Shown in pieces: positions 812 through 64,000 of a DNA stretch of 64,000 nucleotides (the stretch's first letter is position 1; each line of letters opens with the position of its first letter). The notes under the pieces are model-generated. The model saw only the letters and a program-made list of their open reading frames with translations, was not told the DNA's origin and did no database searches. The position numbers were made by a program, and so were the translations under genes. Location: NCBI GenBank assembly GCA_012845835.1, contig JABAKD010000002.1, positions 26,087,210 through 26,151,209 of the forward strand, given 5' to 3'. This DNA is from Undaria pinnatifida (lineage: Eukaryota > Sar > Phaeophyceae > Laminariales > Alariaceae).

Positions 812-1315
812 GAGGAGATGATTCGCTCGGCGCAGGCGCAGAGCGAGGAAGAGCAGATGCGAAACGCCCTTGAAGCTTCCTGCAAAACCGCTGCCGCAGC
901 GGAGGACGAAGCAGAGTTGGTCCGACGAGCTCTTGCCGAATCCATGGCCTCCGTTGCTGTTGGTGGGCCCGCGATGGGGGCGGGGGGTGCGCAAGCAGGC
1001 GACAGTGCAGCGGCAGCAGCGGCGGCGGCAGCGGCCGCGGGGGTAGCATCTCCGGCCGCTGATCAGATCAGAGAAACTTTGTCCCTCGGGGGTAGCGTGG
1101 ACGGCCTAGGCGGCGCTATGGAGGGCCTTGGAGGCGTCTTGGATGGGGACGAGGATGAGGAGTTGAAAAGGGCGTTATTGCTGTCAAGAATGGGTGTGGA
1201 CGGGGGGGAGTCGCCGGGGGAAGCTGCGCTGGGGCTAGGGCAAGGGTCCGTCTTGGATGATTTGCAGGAAGATCCGGAGCTTAAATTTGCGATCAACGCC
1301 TCGCTCTTTGAGTGA
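812..1315 (+). CDS. Last exon of a protein with several ubiquitin-interacting motifs (partial)
   Basis: The exon encodes 167 residues plus a stop and starts in phase 0 after CAG, as EEMIRSAQ. Ubiquitin-interacting motifs are short helices (acidic patch, then Ala-x-x-x-Ser) that bind ubiquitin. I see a clear one, DEAELVRRALAESMAS, a second, DEELKRALLLSRM, and two weaker ones: SEEEQMRNALEASCK and, at the very C-terminus, DPELKFAINASLFE. A Gly/Ala-rich linker with an Ala run separates the first two from the last two. Such arrays occur in proteasome receptors, deubiquitinases and endocytic adaptors; nothing here says which. The N-terminal domains lie outside the window. The upstream intron carries the F1 element. 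The UIM reading is from the family consensus; the exon start is inferred from the acceptor. Confidence 0.7.
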   Translation, partial: EEMIRSAQAQSEEEQMRNALEASCKTAAAAEDEAELVRRALAESMASVAVGGPAMGAGGAQAGDSAAAAAAAAAAAGVASPAADQIRETLSLGGSVDGLGGAMEGLGGVLDGDEDEELKRALLLSRMGVDGGESPGEAALGLGQGSVLDDLQEDPELKFAINASLFE

Positions 1316-10189: not shown

Positions 10190-10270
10190 TAAAATTATTC
10201 TAAACTTCTAACGACGTCTGCTGCGAATTCGACGAATTTAGGGTCGATAGTAGTATCGTCTTTGCAAGCT
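10190..10270 (+). repeat. F8 repeat fragment
   Basis: ACGACGTCTGCTGCGAATTC then GACGAATTTAGGGTCGATA and CTTTGCAAGCTGCGTTG match the copies at 39700, 59130 and (reversed) 45845-46060. Confidence 0.6.
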
Positions 10271-10387
10271 GCGTTGATGCGCCGGTCGTCCGTTTAAAGA
10301 AAGTATTTCATGATGAGTCAAAACTTCTTACTGTAAATCTAGCGATAATGGGGGCGTTGAGAGCTTGCAACGAACCGTGATGATCTT

Positions 10388-10470
10388 GACTTTTTTTTTT
10401 TTAATCCTCCGGCGGATGGGGAAAAATAAAGCTTTAGCTCACCACACGTTCACGTGTTTAGGTGGCATAC
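10388..10470 (-). mobile_element. Poly(A) micro-retroposon, copy 4, 5' part diverged
   Basis: Read on the minus strand: GTGTGGTGAGCTAAAGC, TTTATTTTTCCCC, ATCCGCCGGAGGAT, then a run of 12 A. This 3' half is the same as the other three copies. The 5' hairpin part is not preserved. Confidence 0.75.
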
Positions 10471-25050: not shown

Positions 25051-25159
25051 TACATATTATACTGCTGCAAAAAATGGTACTGAGAGCTGCTCTGTACCTA
25101 GACTAACCCGAAGGGTGCGCCCCAGCTAGCGTTGGGCTGCGAAAGCAACTGAGTTAAAT

Positions 25160-39560: not shown

Positions 39561-39699
39561 TCGTACGTATTTTATTATTGTTGTTGATGGAAAGGGTGTG
39601 TGGGTGGTCGTCGTGTGTATTGACTAGTACGTAACAATCTTTTTGGCCAGGCTCCATTTCTTGCGTGAGGCAGGGTGTGCCCAATGCCGATATTTTGTT
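39561..39699. other. Unassigned
   Basis: Short stretch between F5 and F8. Confidence 0.4.
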
Positions 39700-39775
39700 G
39701 AAATATTTTAAGGACGTCAGCTGTGAGTTCGACGAGTTTAGGGTCAATACTCATCTTTGCACGATATTTGTGCAT
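39700..39775 (+). repeat. F8 repeat, uninterrupted copy
   Basis: TTGAAATATTTTAAGGACGT, GTGAGTTCGACGAGTTTAGG and GTCAATACTCATCTTTGC. It is intact at the place where the 45.9-kb copy carries the micro-retroposon. Confidence 0.7.
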
Positions 39776-43902: not shown

Positions 43903-46900
43903 GTGAGTGCATATTGGTGTGGTTGTGAATGTGATTGCGTAGTATCATGTAGTGTGGTTGTGATCGTGATGTAGGCACCACGTTTTGGGTTTCCTGGTGT
44001 TTTTGTTGGTCCTGGGTCTGCTGTACCAGGTATATGCCTCATCGAAGATGCGCTTAGTGTTATACGCACCCCTCCCCCCCCCCATCCTAACCCCAACCCA
44101 CACCGCACCACACCACACCACACGCCAACCCCCCCCCCCTCTCCCCCCTTCGCATCGGCATGATAGATGTTACAGTGCTGTAGGTAAGACAATGCACATG
44201 ACATACATTCTGTCCTTCCCGAACCAAACAAATAATGAGAAAAAATGCTATGTACGTATGCCTACTCTGTATTGTAGTCCATGGCAATATCATACGTCAT
44301 ATTTGTGGGAAATTTAGTACGGGGATGTTTGTTTGTTTGTGAGGTCAACGCTCGTGAAAGCCCAACTCTACACCTTATTATATATGGGGTATAGAATCAT
44401 ATAGCGTAGTATACGAGGGCACTCTACTGCTACAATCTGCGCTCAAAAGGGAGGGTCCCCCGCGTGTTGAAAGTCGGCGAAAGGGTTTTCAAAAAGGCAA
44501 AAGGCAAAGAGGGCTCTCGTGTGCGCTTCCTGCTACTCGTACGCTAGCAGAGCAGAGCGCAGAGTTTACATATCATACACTCCAACGAAAAACAGAAACT
44601 ATTTTCGTAGTAGTAGCAAGCAACCCTCTCCCGCGAGCCGCAAGCAGACCCTTAGTGCTAAATCAACCACGTTACATGGCGGGACTCTACAGAAACCAGT
44701 AGGTCTTCTCTTAGGTCCCACGATTTTTCGGTGAACCGATTGGTCCCTGCGTGGCAGCTAAAAGGGTCCCCTCGTCTCCTTACACCAAACATTATACAAA
44801 AACATCATAATATCATACTTGATAAAAAACAAAGTATTAATAGCATCTCTGGTACAAAGTATCATCCTGTCCCGAAATATAATAACCATTTTGGTTTTAG
44901 TATCAATATTTAACTGGTCCTTATATTTCGGGCTATTAATGATAAATATGATCTCCTTTCGTATCGTACTAAAAACCTTGAAAATATTTGTTGTGTACGA
45001 TATAATGAACACGTGATAAGAAAAAGGGCCCTATGGGTGTGTATCTGTCTCCCGGATCACCCTATGAATTTTGAATAGCTGTCCTTTCCTTTGGTCTCAC
45101 TGTCATAATGGCGTGTTCCATGGAGTTTTTGTTGTTGCCGTTGGCTGTTGGCCGAATGAATGCCTCATCCCCCCCGCCCACCTCGCCCCTCGACGGTACG
45201 TGTGGTCGACCCCCAGGTCGGGGTGAGCTAGTTGGCTGGCGTTTGCCTCGTGTTTGGTTGTGCCTTTGGTTTTGTTTTGCCGGGAACAACGAACGCACAG
45301 GCTTCACAGGGGCGTGTCTCGCAGACATCTCGTCCCTGCTGCAGGGTAGACTATTAATATGATACATATAATATACCTGTGGTAAATTTTTATAATATAC
45401 CTGTGGTACAATTTATACCACGGACTGTGTTCTTCATATAAAACTGATATTTCCACGGTATTTTGGTCTTAGTCTAGACCGACCCTTCTTTCTGCCACTG
45501 AAAAAAAAATCCCACACAAAACCCAAGTAGTTTTGTTCCCAAAACATGGTCTTGTTCTTCGCATTAACCTGATATTTCCACCCATCTTTATCCAGCCAGC
45601 ACAACCTAGTTTCCGTGCTGCAGTGCTGATGCCTCATACATCGAGAGACGCTCTGCGGTCACAAACTACAAGGCAGAGATGCGCGATTCAACTTGTACAG
45701 CAAGGTGGTTGTTCATGCAGTACCAACCGCAATGAGCAAGCTCGCGAAGTATGTACGCTATATATACTCGTATATATGTGTCTGTTTTTTAACGGAACAA
45801 TATGACCCCTCCCATTATGAAAAAACTCACCCACATAGTATATTACAAGTAAGTACCAACAACGCAGCTCGCAAAGATGAGTATTGACCCGAACGACACA
45901 CGACGCGTATGAAAATACGCGGAAGTGTGGTGAGCTAAAGCTTTATTTTTCCCCATCCGCCGGAGGATAAAAAATAAAAAAAAAAAAAAAAAATTGACCC
46001 GAAATTCGTCGAACTCACGGCTGACGTCCTTGAAATATTTTTATAAAATATGCAAGCCAGCACACAAGACTATTTGAAGTAAAAAATGAAGAAAAAAACG
46101 ATAAGGACATGACAAGTGGAAATAAAGAGGACAAAGACAATTGGAAATAAAGAGGGAAGCAAGAAAAGACGGCACGACAAAAATGAAAAACAAAGCACAA
46201 CAGACAGCCACAGACTATTAATAGCAACTATTAATAGCAACACACACAGCAGATGACGCCAGCCAAACAAGATGGGGGGGCCAGCAACCATATTGGGTTT
46301 CGAATGACCATACTCTGTAGGAGTAGGAGCATTACCTCATGGTTTGTCTCCTGCGCATCGTTGCTGGCGACAGCAGTTTAGTGGTGCCAATACCGCCATC
46401 GTCGCCCGCCGTACCGAATGGAAAAACAAAGCTTAGTAATTGAGCAACAAAAACGCAGCAACAAAGCCGATGACACCACCCAGCCGGCGTCGGGGCAGCA
46501 GCTGAATTGACTTCCGAATGCAGCCACTAGAAGAGGGTTAGGAGCATTGCTGCCTCTGGTCTGCCCTCTACATGCTGAATCTTCGACGGCAATGCTCATA
46601 CCGACATGATCACCTCCATATCTCCCCCACGGGTGTACTCGTAGTCAACAGGAAACCAGAAAGGGCGAGGCAAAAGACATACCAGGTACCTCAGAGTAGT
46701 ATGTTAGACTATAGTGCTATTGATGTGGTATACCTGGTATACGTATGATATATGTACGCATAACATGAGTGATAATCCTTTCGTGAACTACGTGTTGTGA
46801 CCGGTACGTATCATAGTCTGTGCGTGTTTCGCTTATTGGTCTATTAATGAAGGTATCGTATACGCAGTAAATTGTATAGTTCTGTACCAGGTACTTGTTA

Positions 46901-59016: not shown

Positions 59017-59125
59017 AACCCCCGAGGTAATATTTATATCATAGAGGTGTGCGATTTCTGAACACTAGGAAAATGCGCCTGACGCGCGGTAGTTTTGGTT
59101 TCAATACTCGTACATAATATTTTAT
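59017..59125. other. Unassigned
   Basis: Short spacer between SINE and F8. Confidence 0.4.
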
Positions 59126-59217
59126 AAAACTATTTCAAGGACGTCGTCAGCCGTGAGTTCGACGAATTTCGGGTCAATACTCATCTCTGCAAGCTGCGTT
59201 GTTGGTACTTGTAATAA
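59126..59217 (+). repeat. F8 repeat, uninterrupted copy
   Basis: TTCAAGGACGTCGTCAGCC, TTCGACGAATTTCGGGTCAA and GCAAGCTGCGTTGTTGGTAC. It is the closest empty-site counterpart of the 45.9-kb insertion. Confidence 0.75.
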
Positions 59218-61045
59218 TCTATACGGGTGATTTTTTTCATGATGGGGAGGGGTATTATTAGTACGTGGTATGATGTATATTTTTTCATTTTTTTCCATTC
59301 CATGTATGATACGAGTAAAATGTTGTCTGCGCTTTTTCTCCAACTCCCTCTCTTTCCGTCACCACGTAAAACAGCTAGTAGTATCTGGGGCCAAACAACA
59401 GACCCCCCCCCCCCCCTCCCCCGCGCGCCTTTACAACTGCACTACTGCGAGAACGATGCATGGCGTTAACTACATCGCGAGAATGGTCCAACGTTTATTT
59501 ACTGCACAGGAGGACAAAGTGTGCCTTGCGTAGAAGAAACAAACGCAATCCCTTCGTCCCTTCTTAGAACGCCGAGAAGAACGAGCTTCTCGAGCACTGA
59601 TAATAGTTGCTACTGGTATGTATGATGCTATATTACCAATTGATTGAGTGACACTGAACATAACGCACGTAAAACTGTATGGTGGCTGGCAGGGCGGCAA
59701 TAAGTTGGCTGACTCTAAATAAAAACCGCCGACTAGGTTAAACACACACACACTATTTAATGGATATAAATAATAGGTGATTACACTTGGTTGGTTAGTT
59801 GTTTGCGATAATAAGTTAGTTGCCGAATTTTGCGTCTGTCTGTGTATTGGGAAGGGACTGGCGCGCTGAGTTTGTGGCTCGACGTGCGGTGTTTGTTCAT
59901 TGAATTTTTACTCCGCAACCCTATGCTAACCCTATATATGCTAACAAAGCTAGCTGTGAAGTCCAGGCAAGTAGCTCTATAATACTGCAAATAATGACGG
60001 CATGACGAAGCCACAGCTAGGTGCTTCTACGCTAACGAAAATGACAGCATGACGGAGTCAGCTGCTGCTATAATACAACAGTAGTAGTAGTACGTATATT
60101 TAGCAGCATGAAAACTAGCAATCGGTTTTTGATTAGAAACAGTTATCACAACTCATCTTAAAAAATCACACGTGGGTTGTTGGTGTAATAAACATGAACA
60201 GCAGTCAGTGTAAATAGTCATATAAGTAACACTTTTATTAATAAAATGTTTAACGTTCTTGTTTTAATGTCGATATATTCGGACTGAGTGAGTAGCTATC
60301 GCGGTTCAAAATTGGGTCAATATCTCGTTGCAGAGTTTATACGTTAGAAAATTTTACTCGCATTTATTTGCCTATCGATTGTACCCCTCCCTGTGATTTT
60401 TTAAAGACAGATTTAAGTTGCCGGGCCTAGTGTTTTGATTAGGTTTGTTGCTCGTACCAGCACAGACGCGGCACATACATATCTATGCTCTGTCAGAGGT
60501 ACTAACTATGTGCAGCTTCCTTGCACATGTCTAAGGTCGATTGTATTAACCAATAGCTAGCGTCGTGTAGGAAAAAAAATAGGTTGGTAGAGTGGTACTG
60601 CCTCGGGCGGAAAGAAATCTCCCCCCACCGCCTCCTCCCCCCACAGGGCCGACGCGACCCTGACCCCACGATTTCTCGCCTATTTTATTCGTTCTTCAAC
60701 GAACGTCAGACCCGCCCCAAAGCTAACTCCTCCTGGTGCTAGTGGGTGACGCGTGATGCCGCTGTATGCCGTGTTTGTCCTGCTGTATAGATAGACAATG
60801 TATAATACCACAGAGACAGGCATGGTTGTGTATATGGCATAGACCAGAAGTTTAAGTGATGATGATGGGGTGAGTTTGAAGGTACACGGGAACGGCGATA
60901 GGATACGGCGGCGATATGGGATACGGCGGCATAAAAAACGTCCCTTTCTTATATACCGTCATCATAGCGTCATAGCCCATGGGGGGGCGGTAGGGAAGAA
61001 ATCGCGCGCAACTATGTATGGGGCGTGATTTTCTTTTTCTCGTGT
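59218..61045. other. No gene seen
   Basis: Unassigned. GGATACGGCGGC is repeated at 60901-60932. Confidence 0.4.
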
Positions 61046-62591: not shown

Positions 62592-64000
62592 GTAAAGTTA
62601 TAGGTGGGGACACAGAGTGCCCCCTGCAGGTCTGCCAATTGAGCAGGTCCTCGAAGAGTACTCACTTTATTTTCCTTCATAGAGACGTAGCTTTATTCGA
62701 TTCCACCAGAGCCCCACATAGCTTCTGAGATCGGAGGCACGTGCCTCCGATCTATTTCCTAACTTTCCCGAATGTAAAACGCCAAACTTATCATACGAAA
62801 CCCATCCGAATGATCTCAAATTCGGATAATTACAGGCCTTTCGAGGCCGTGTCTTAACACTAGCCCACCCTGATGAGTCGCATATGCAGAAATATGGGAG
62901 ATTCGGGGAAATTCCGGTCCTACGAACTAGACCATGAGTCGGAGATGCGGCTCCTCAAAACCCACTCCCACACCTTTAACCGTCTGGCTATGGAGCCAAG
63001 AACACGCAAAGAAAAGCAGTTGAAAGAAACGCAGACCCTACAACAAGGCAAAAGTCACCCATCAAAAACCTGCCGCGTGCCGCCGGTGTGGCGGGGGGGG
63101 GGCAGAAAAGGCTCTAGAACCTGCCGCATGCCGCCGGTGTGGCGGGGGGGGGCAAGAAAGGCTCTACGGCAAACCAACCACAGAAAAGGTACCATGGCGA
63201 GGCGAGCCCTCGTCGATATGGAGGGGAACACAGGCGCTAACACAAGGGAGAAGTCATGCGAAAAATCTCCCGCGGGCCATCGGCACGGCGGGGGGTTAGA
63301 CGAGGAAAAGACAAATACCCGGGATGGAAGGTGGCAACACCCACAGCCCCGCTAGGGGGGGAAGTGTTTAGTCGAAAAAAAAAAGTAGAACAAATACAAC
63401 ACACAAAAGATAAAAGATGACACACAGACCCGTACATTGCCCTGTCTGTACCAAGTTACGCGCGAACAGGGTACCCTGGTCGCCCCCCGGCTCTGGGCTC
63501 AGGAGGGCGTCGGCAGGGCAAAATTGAACAGTGACGAAAAGGCGACAGCCCTGCGCCTCAGATAGCGGCGTTTTACCCGAACCCTGACCCGCCACTTAAC
63601 AGGGGGTTCGGCAGGACAGAAAGAAAAAATAATGGAAGAACCGCCCCCAAACCCGAGTCCTGCCGTCGACGCCACATGTAAAGTTATAGGTGGGGACACA
63701 GAGTGCCCCCTGCAGGTCTGCCGATTGAGCAGGTCCTCGGAGAGTACTCATTTTCTTTTCCTTCGTAGAGACGTAGCTTTTTTTTTCTTTTTTTTTCTTC
63801 CTCCGGCGGATGGGGAAAAATAAATCTTTAGCTCACCACACTTCCACGTATTTCCATACGCGTCGTGATATGTAGCTTTATTCGATTACACCAGAGCCCC
63901 GGATAGCTTCTGAGATCGGAGTCACGTGCCTCCGATTTATTTCCTAACGTTCCCGAATACAAAACGCCAACCTTATCACACGAAACCCATCCAAATGATC
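62592..64000 (+). mobile_element. Fossil LTR-like, non-autonomous element, runs off the window
   Basis: Direct repeats begin at 62592 and about 63679 (GTAAAGTTATAGGTGGGGAC) and are mostly identical over the ~225 bp visible, so this copy is younger than those at 33.9 and 61.2 kb. The ~0.8-kb interior opens with TAGCCCACCCTGATGAGTCG and has a basic open frame (62873-63355) with two copies of a CRVPPVWRGG-like motif. No polymerase or integrase is visible, so it looks TRIM-like. The right repeat is cut by the window edge and carries the micro-retroposon. Confidence 0.5.
63772..63880 (-). mobile_element. Poly(A) micro-retroposon, copy 3, in the LTR-like repeat
   Basis: On the minus strand: CACGACGCGTAT, GGAA, ATACGTGGAAGTGTGGTG, AGCTAAAG, TTATTTTTCCCC, ATCCGCCGGAGGA, then an A tail with G interruptions. 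GTAGCTTT on the plus strand flanks both ends. The left repeat at 62688-62702 shows the unoccupied site. Confidence 0.85.

What the first reader, a model, noticed from the sequence alone, without database searches (positions are those of the whole stretch)
45883..46002. A ~76-nt poly(A)-tailed retroposon with a perfect 10-bp target duplication and an empty site in the same window
Seen: ATTGACCCGA on both sides of the 45893-45992 unit, an A-rich tail abutting the right copy, and intact F8 copies at 59126, 39700 and 10190 that lack the insert at that exact point. Established: TSD plus poly(A) is the mark of LINE-mediated retroposition. Inference: the unit is a very short SINE or a retroposed small RNA, far below usual SINE length. 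Two copies (25160 and 45893) begin at the same 5' base or within one base, which argues against random 5' truncation of something longer.
Basis: partly seen in the sequence, partly recalled or inferred. Interest (0 to 1): 0.85.

Follow-up and report, generated by a model that had tools for sequence, protein, structure and literature searches.

The report
Broken tail of a kelp retroposon
The short insert is a real copy-and-paste insertion in the wakame kelp genome, but it is a cut-off end of a common element about 405 bases long, not a new ultra-short element.

Summary
An insert with an A-rich tail sits between perfect direct repeats, 11 bp rather than 10 (45883-45893 and 45993-46003). Three paralogous copies of the host repeat read straight through the empty site.

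It is a retroposition event, but the 75-nt body is not an element of its own. It is nt 330-404 of a dispersed poly(A)-tailed family of about 405 nt in the window's assembly. That assembly is Undaria pinnatifida: one contig length equals the published scaffold N50. The family's 3'-terminal 18-mer occurs 6,039 times; its 5'-terminal 18-mer occurs 609 times.

In a sample not chosen by 5' end, 9 of 73 copies start at nt 1-2 and 64 are truncated, at 57 different positions. The window's four copies begin at nt 278, 330, 335 and 349, so the claimed shared 5' end is wrong. Genome-wide counts show no excess of 5' ends at nt 330.

TSDs, A-tails, 5' truncation and one 5'-inverted copy point to target-primed reverse transcription by a LINE enzyme acting in trans. 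No ORF of note, tRNA-like or Rfam head, or Pol III box was found, and the partner LINE was not identified.

The parts
45883..45893 (.). left copy of the 11-bp target-site duplication ATTGACCCGAA
45894..45968 (+). retroposon body: nt 330-404 of the ~405-nt family (5'-truncated copy, 98.7% identical to the reference copy L015)
45969..45992 (+). A-rich tail
45993..46003 (.). right copy of the target-site duplication
63799..63867 (-). third copy, nt 335-403; 8-bp TSD AAAGCTAC with 4 extra bases before the body
10404..10459 (-). fourth copy, nt 349-404, more diverged (94.6%); no TSD detected
59117..59259 (-). paralogous host-repeat copy without the insert (empty site)
39690..39760 (-). paralogous host-repeat copy without the insert (empty site)
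10210..10279 (-). paralogous host-repeat copy without the insert (empty site), 77% identical

Best explanation
The insert is a dead-on-arrival, 5'-truncated copy of an abundant non-autonomous retroposon of Undaria pinnatifida, about 405 nt long with a fixed 3' end and an A-rich tail. Shown: the insertion, its TSD, the (paralogous) empty site, the parent family with a sharp 5' end, and scattered truncation points. Inferred: an RNA starting at (C)CGAGGACC was polyadenylated or carried an encoded A tail. A LINE endonuclease nicked the target repeat, a LINE reverse transcriptase primed on the A tail and copied the RNA from its 3' end, and it stopped after about 75 nt. The staggered nick was then filled in, giving the 11-bp duplication. 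The LINE that supplies the enzyme is not identified.
For: Tail 18-mer: 6,039 exact copies; reversed-pattern control 0. Head 18-mer: 609. Of those, 565 have C just before and 401 have CC, so the 5' end is sharp to about 2 nt. In 70 loci taken in list order along contig C1: 73 exact-tail copies, 9 starting at nt 1-2, 64 truncated at 57 distinct positions. No shared same-strand sequence abuts the start upstream of 12 copies with an intact 5' end; the one pair with any match, the two copies in L105, matches only 500 or more bases away. TSD of 8 bp or more in 26 of 73 against 0.35 by control. L012 is a 5'-inverted copy inside a perfect 13-bp TSD, GACCGGATCATAC, as in twin priming. No excess of 5' ends at nt 330. 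Even a 24-nt remnant (L027, nt 381-404) has an 11-bp TSD.
Against: In 37 of 73 sampled copies no TSD of 6 bp or more was found by the exact-match rule; age or indels may explain this. The partner LINE was not found: none of six held LINE 3' regions, from two families, shares the tail, and they end in (AC)n or (AAC)n, not poly(A). Among the 40 scored hits to the finding itself (of 247 candidates), 6, the window copy included, begin at nt 330. I read this as a product of the search, whose first look skips common words and so favours junction words, because it vanishes. That reading is an inference.
Confidence: 0.94

Rival explanations
1. One reading: an independent ultra-short (~76-nt) SINE or retroposed small RNA whose own discrete transcript begins at this 5' base.
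For: 6 of the 40 scored hits to the finding, itself included, begin at nt 330. The 3' 75 nt is predicted to hold hairpins.
Against: 0 of 73 copies in the sample not chosen by 5' end start at nt 330. Copies with a non-family base before nt 330 number 57, fewer than 84 at nt 333 and 109 at nt 326; these counts mix truncations with point changes. The window's other three copies start elsewhere.
Confidence: 0.03
2. The ~405-nt unit is a true SINE with an RNA polymerase III promoter whose head is too diverged to recognise.
For: Length, copy number, sharp 5' end, A-tail, lack of an ORF of note (longest stop-to-stop frame 75 codons). The best sense-strand B-box-like string lies at nt 39, with 7 of 10 positions.
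Against: Within nt 1-120 that B-box score is reached by 169 of 500 shuffles and the best A-box score by 489 of 500. No tRNA by ARAGORN in 6 loci with full-length copies. No Rfam match up to E = 1 in the one full-length copy scanned.
Confidence: 0.35
3. The ~405-nt unit is an internally deleted derivative of an autonomous LINE (5' end joined to 3' end), comparable with RIME from ingi in trypanosomes (recalled), moved by that LINE.
For: Sharp 5' end, 5' truncation and a 5' inversion are LINE-like. In Ectocarpus a ~600-bp family of over 6,000 copies shares its 3' end with RTE-X LINEs (PMC12477816, passages).
Against: No similarity to the 3' regions of six LINE copies from two families. Of the four reverse transcriptases that one search lists on C1 within the 7.69 Mb covered by the tail list, one has a same-strand tail within 2 kb downstream; on reading (L125) it is a LINE that ends in its own (AAC)n followed by a truncated copy. 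The sampled loci were not scanned for reverse transcriptases, and no LINE 5' end was read.
Confidence: 0.35
4. Not retroposition: a short DNA transposon or a recombination product with chance direct repeats.
For: None found. The host repeat is itself multi-copy.
Against: A-rich tail, one constant 3' end with variable 5' ends, TSD statistics and the empty site.
Confidence: 0.01

Closest known systems
RTEX-N1_Ec32 of Ectocarpus (PMC12477816, passages seen)
   Same: Brown algal, short, non-autonomous, thousands of copies, 5' region of unknown origin, LINE-dependent by inference.
   Different: About 600 bp there, about 405 nt here. Its 3' end matches RTE-X LINEs; here no LINE 3' match was found among six copies of two families. 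Sequences were not compared: no Ectocarpus sequence was available to me.
Classical SINEs (tRNA-, 5S- or 7SL-headed; recalled)
   Same: Size, copy number, A-tail, TSD, no ORF of note.
   Different: No recognisable Pol III head or boxes. Heavy 5' truncation, with about one head 18-mer for ten tail 18-mers (609 against 6,039), is more LINE-like.
5'-truncated and 5'-inverted LINE insertions (twin priming; PMC2837659 and PMC2912911, search listing with start of abstract only)
   Same: Scattered 5' ends, constant A-tailed 3' end, TSD, one inverted copy within a TSD.
   Different: The parent element is only about 405 nt and codes for nothing recognisable.

Membership tests
Ultra-short (~76-nt) SINE | Discrete 5' end at the start of this copy (nt 330) | tested here: not met
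   0 of 73; 57 against 84 and 109 at control positions. Against this: 6 of 40 scored hits to the finding start there, read as search selection
LINE-mobilised retroposon (TPRT product) | Target-site duplication | tested here: met
   11 bp here; 26 of 73 copies at 8 bp or more against 0.35 expected
LINE-mobilised retroposon (TPRT product) | Constant A-tailed 3' end, scattered 5' truncations, occasional 5' inversion | tested here: met
   one inverted copy L012
LINE-mobilised retroposon (TPRT product) | Identified LINE that supplies the enzymes | tested here: inconclusive
   Six LINE 3' regions from two families share nothing with it and end in simple repeats; other families were not read
Classical SINE | Short, no ORF, own sharp 5' end | tested here: met
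   longest stop-to-stop frame 75 codons in L015; 5' end sharp to ~2 nt
Classical SINE | Pol III promoter or tRNA/5S/7SL-derived head | tested here: not met
   box scores in nt 1-120 reached by 489/500 (A) and 169/500 (B) shuffles; ARAGORN 0 in 6 loci; Rfam 0 at E up to 1 for L017
RTEX-N1-like brown algal non-autonomous LINE | 3' end homologous to an RTE-X LINE | not tested
   No LINE clade was assigned here; the two LINE families read do not match

The most novel reading that the evidence does not exclude
A structured ~405-nt non-coding RNA of unknown origin, without a Pol III promoter and possibly made by Pol II, has become the template of a very prolific LINE-dependent retroposon family in kelp. 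Published annotation counts only 326 SINEs in this genome, so most of the family must sit under other headings.
Probability: 0.35. Interest if true: 0.45.

Novelty: new member of a known kind. Interest (0 to 1): 0.27.

Why it matters
It removes a false lead (a 76-nt autonomous-looking SINE) and replaces it with a usable fact: Undaria carries a mostly young, high-copy, non-autonomous retroposon family, most of which cannot be among the SINEs of the published repeat table (326 SINEs, 17,815 bp; PMC7058681). Young insertions with clean empty sites could serve as presence/absence markers in a farmed seaweed. The family also adds a second brown alga to the Ectocarpus case of a prolific retroposon with a head of unknown origin.

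Tried and rejected
Shared 5' end of the 25160 and 45893 copies: rejected, since the former begins at 25106.

Apparent 5'-end cluster at nt 330 among the 40 scored hits (6 of 40), and repeated ATTGACC-type target sites among them: rejected as search selection, since the query carried the junctions and the tool skips common words. No such cluster appears in the sample or in the genome counts.

Partner LINE: six 3' regions downstream of reverse transcriptases read, no match. One reverse transcriptase with a tail 18-mer 1.8 kb downstream (L125) looked promising but is a LINE ending in (AAC)n followed by a truncated copy of this family.

Conserved RNA structure: L017 folds better than shuffles (z -4.34). 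An alignment of 14 copies, most of them chosen for divergence, gives only 1 of 26 pairs with a double change and a covariation term of +0.48, so it is not supported.

Viral contigs scanned with a 24-base tail pattern: 0 matches. Rfam on the whole window at gathering scores: 0. Pfam on 7 of the window's 8 listed ORFs: no mobile-element family.

Literature: 7 searches. None of the titles listed names this family; lists were capped and the library holds open-licence papers only.

Weak points: the sample comes from one contig and needs an exact tail 18-mer, so it favours young copies. Two of the 73 copies (L090, L091) share flanks and are one insertion event. Total copy number beyond the 6,039 exact matches was not measured.

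Full report
What is there. The window lies on contig C26 of a 511,146,479-base assembly in 68 contigs. Contig C34 of that assembly is 16,510,065 bases long (rows of L071 and L076). That is exactly the scaffold N50 published for Undaria pinnatifida, whose 114 scaffolds total 511,280,173 bases (PMC7058681, passages); the held assembly is about 134 kb shorter and has fewer contigs. Sixty-one matches to the chlorophyll-binding family PF00504 fit an alga. I therefore take the host to be the wakame kelp. The insert itself is as described, with the duplication one base longer than stated: ATTGACCCGAA at 45883-45893 and 45993-46003, body 45894-45968, A-rich tail 45969-45992.

Empty site. With the insert and one TSD copy left out, the joined flanks align across the junction to 59259-59117, 39760-39690 and 10279-10210 at 87.1, 90.1 and 77.1% identity; three shorter hits at 79-81% also cross it. 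These are other copies of the same host repeat, so the empty site is paralogous, not allelic.

It is part of something longer. An exact search with the last 18 bases of the body finds 6,039 places in the genome and none for the reversed control. In the first 30 places, all on C1, most bodies run further upstream than the finding's copy, to different points, and some are shorter. The longest share one start, GAGGACCAACGCCCG, 404 nt from the end. Twelve copies with that start share no same-strand sequence abutting it; the only upstream match among them is between the two copies in L105 and lies 500 or more bases away. Genome-wide, the first 18 bases occur 609 times. Of those, 565 are preceded by C and 401 by CC, so the real start is most likely (C)CGAGGACC and the unit is about 405 nt. 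Against the reference copy L015, the finding's body is nt 330-404.

5' ends. I fetched 70 C1 loci (30, 40), which hold the first 73 of the 100 places that one search lists. Of these 73 exact-tail copies nine start at nt 1 or 2 and 64 are truncated, at 57 distinct positions, with median start nt 288; jittered data give 51-60 distinct positions. Two of the 73 (L090, L091) share their flanks, so they are one insertion later duplicated. None starts at nt 330. The four window copies start at nt 278, 330, 335 and 349.

A result that pointed the other way. Among the 40 scored matches to the finding, of 247 candidates, six, the window's copy included, begin at nt 330, and several carry ATTGACC-like target sites. 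The query contained both junctions, and the tool skips words that are common in the genome, so junction-like words were favoured; this reading is an inference. As a direct test I counted genome-wide the copies whose base just upstream of a given position departs from the family. There were 57 at nt 330, 84 at nt 333 and 109 at nt 326. These counts mix truncations with point changes and the patterns differ a little in length, but they show no peak at nt 330.

Mechanism. In 26 of 73 sampled copies an exact TSD of 8 bp or more encloses the body and tail, against 0.35 expected from swapped flanks; 12 reach 11 bp or more against 0, two of them in simple repeats. In 37 of 73 no TSD of 6 bp or more was found. 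One copy, L012, carries a perfect 13-bp TSD around an inverted block (nt 361-108) followed by nt 357-404 and the A-tail, with a further 24-nt fold-back at its 5' side. Such 5' inversions are the mark of twin priming in LINE reverse transcription (recalled; PMC2837659 and PMC2912911 seen only as listing and start of abstract). A fixed A-tailed 3' end, truncated 5' ends, TSDs and an inversion together make target-primed reverse transcription by a LINE enzyme the best-supported route. That step is inferred; no enzyme was shown. The finding's copy is 98.7% identical to L015. Ten of 11 full-length copies lie within 6% of their majority sequence and the eleventh, L113, at 15%, so most of these copies look fairly young, with some older members.

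What the parent is. It has no ORF of note (longest stop-to-stop frame 75 codons in L015) and no sense-strand box A or B better than shuffles. There is no tRNA by ARAGORN in six loci and no Rfam match at E up to 1 in L017. One full-length copy folds better than shuffles (z -4.34), but 14 aligned copies show no useful covariation. The partner LINE was not found. Six LINE copies, of two families by mutual alignment, have 3' ends in (AC)n or (AAC)n and no similarity to the unit. I therefore do not file it as a classical SINE; 'LINE-dependent non-autonomous retroposon' is as far as the evidence goes.

Known or not. The Undaria genome paper's table lists 326 SINEs covering 17,815 bp and 36.1% 'unknown' repeats (PMC7058681, passages), so most of this family cannot be under SINE there; which heading holds it was not tested. 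The nearest described case that I found is RTEX-N1_Ec32 of Ectocarpus: about 600 bp, non-autonomous, over 6,000 copies, with a 5' region of unknown origin (PMC12477816, passages). The two sequences could not be compared here. Passages of the Saccharina (PMC6507550) and Macrocystis (PMC10498591) genome papers name no such family. Seven literature searches listed no title naming this family, in a library of open-licence papers only.

Verdict. Observation confirmed with one correction (11 bp) and one false sub-claim (the shared 5' end). The insert is an ordinary truncated retroposon copy. I found no description of the parent family in those searches, but it is of a known kind.

Noticed in passing
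L012:1203-1518 (+ tail and flanks): Copy with a 5' inversion (nt 361-108) plus a 24-nt fold-back, all inside one perfect 13-bp TSD: a compound twin-priming-like event.
   Followed up: partly
L027, L023, L092, L106, L109: Ultra-short remnants of 21-32 nt of the same family with A-rich tails; L027 (24 nt) has an 11-bp TSD.
   Followed up: partly
L125:2400-2651: A truncated copy (nt 299-404) begins 3 bases after the end of a LINE match at its (AAC)n; it could be a nested insertion (short AACTGT repeat, read by eye) or a template-jump chimera.
   Followed up: no
5' junctions of full-length copies in L026, L080, L105: Between TSD and GAGGACC lie 3-5 bases ending in CC (the L080 TSD is weak, 6 bp); part is the element's own (C)C, the rest may be untemplated.
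   Followed up: partly
L101:1033-1438: A full-length copy lies inside another copy of the same family (nt 1-386 on one side, 363-404 on the other); its 14-bp TSD is family sequence.
   Followed up: no
window 45799-46051 and copies at 59117-59259, 39690-39761, 10211-10279; also L017: The host repeat (ATTGACCCGAAATTCGTCGAACTCACGGCTGACGTCC core) is a separate multi-copy family; copies L040 and L055 carry near-identical ATTGACC(C/T)GAA TSDs, so it may be a recurrent target, though the search that found them favoured this.
   Followed up: no
L119-L124: Two LINE families ending in (AC)n and (AAC)n; the six copies read have open frames of 1,154-1,286 aa around their reverse transcriptase.
   Followed up: partly
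window 818-1315 (+): 165-aa ORF with ubiquitin-interaction motif matches above the Pfam cut-off.
   Followed up: no
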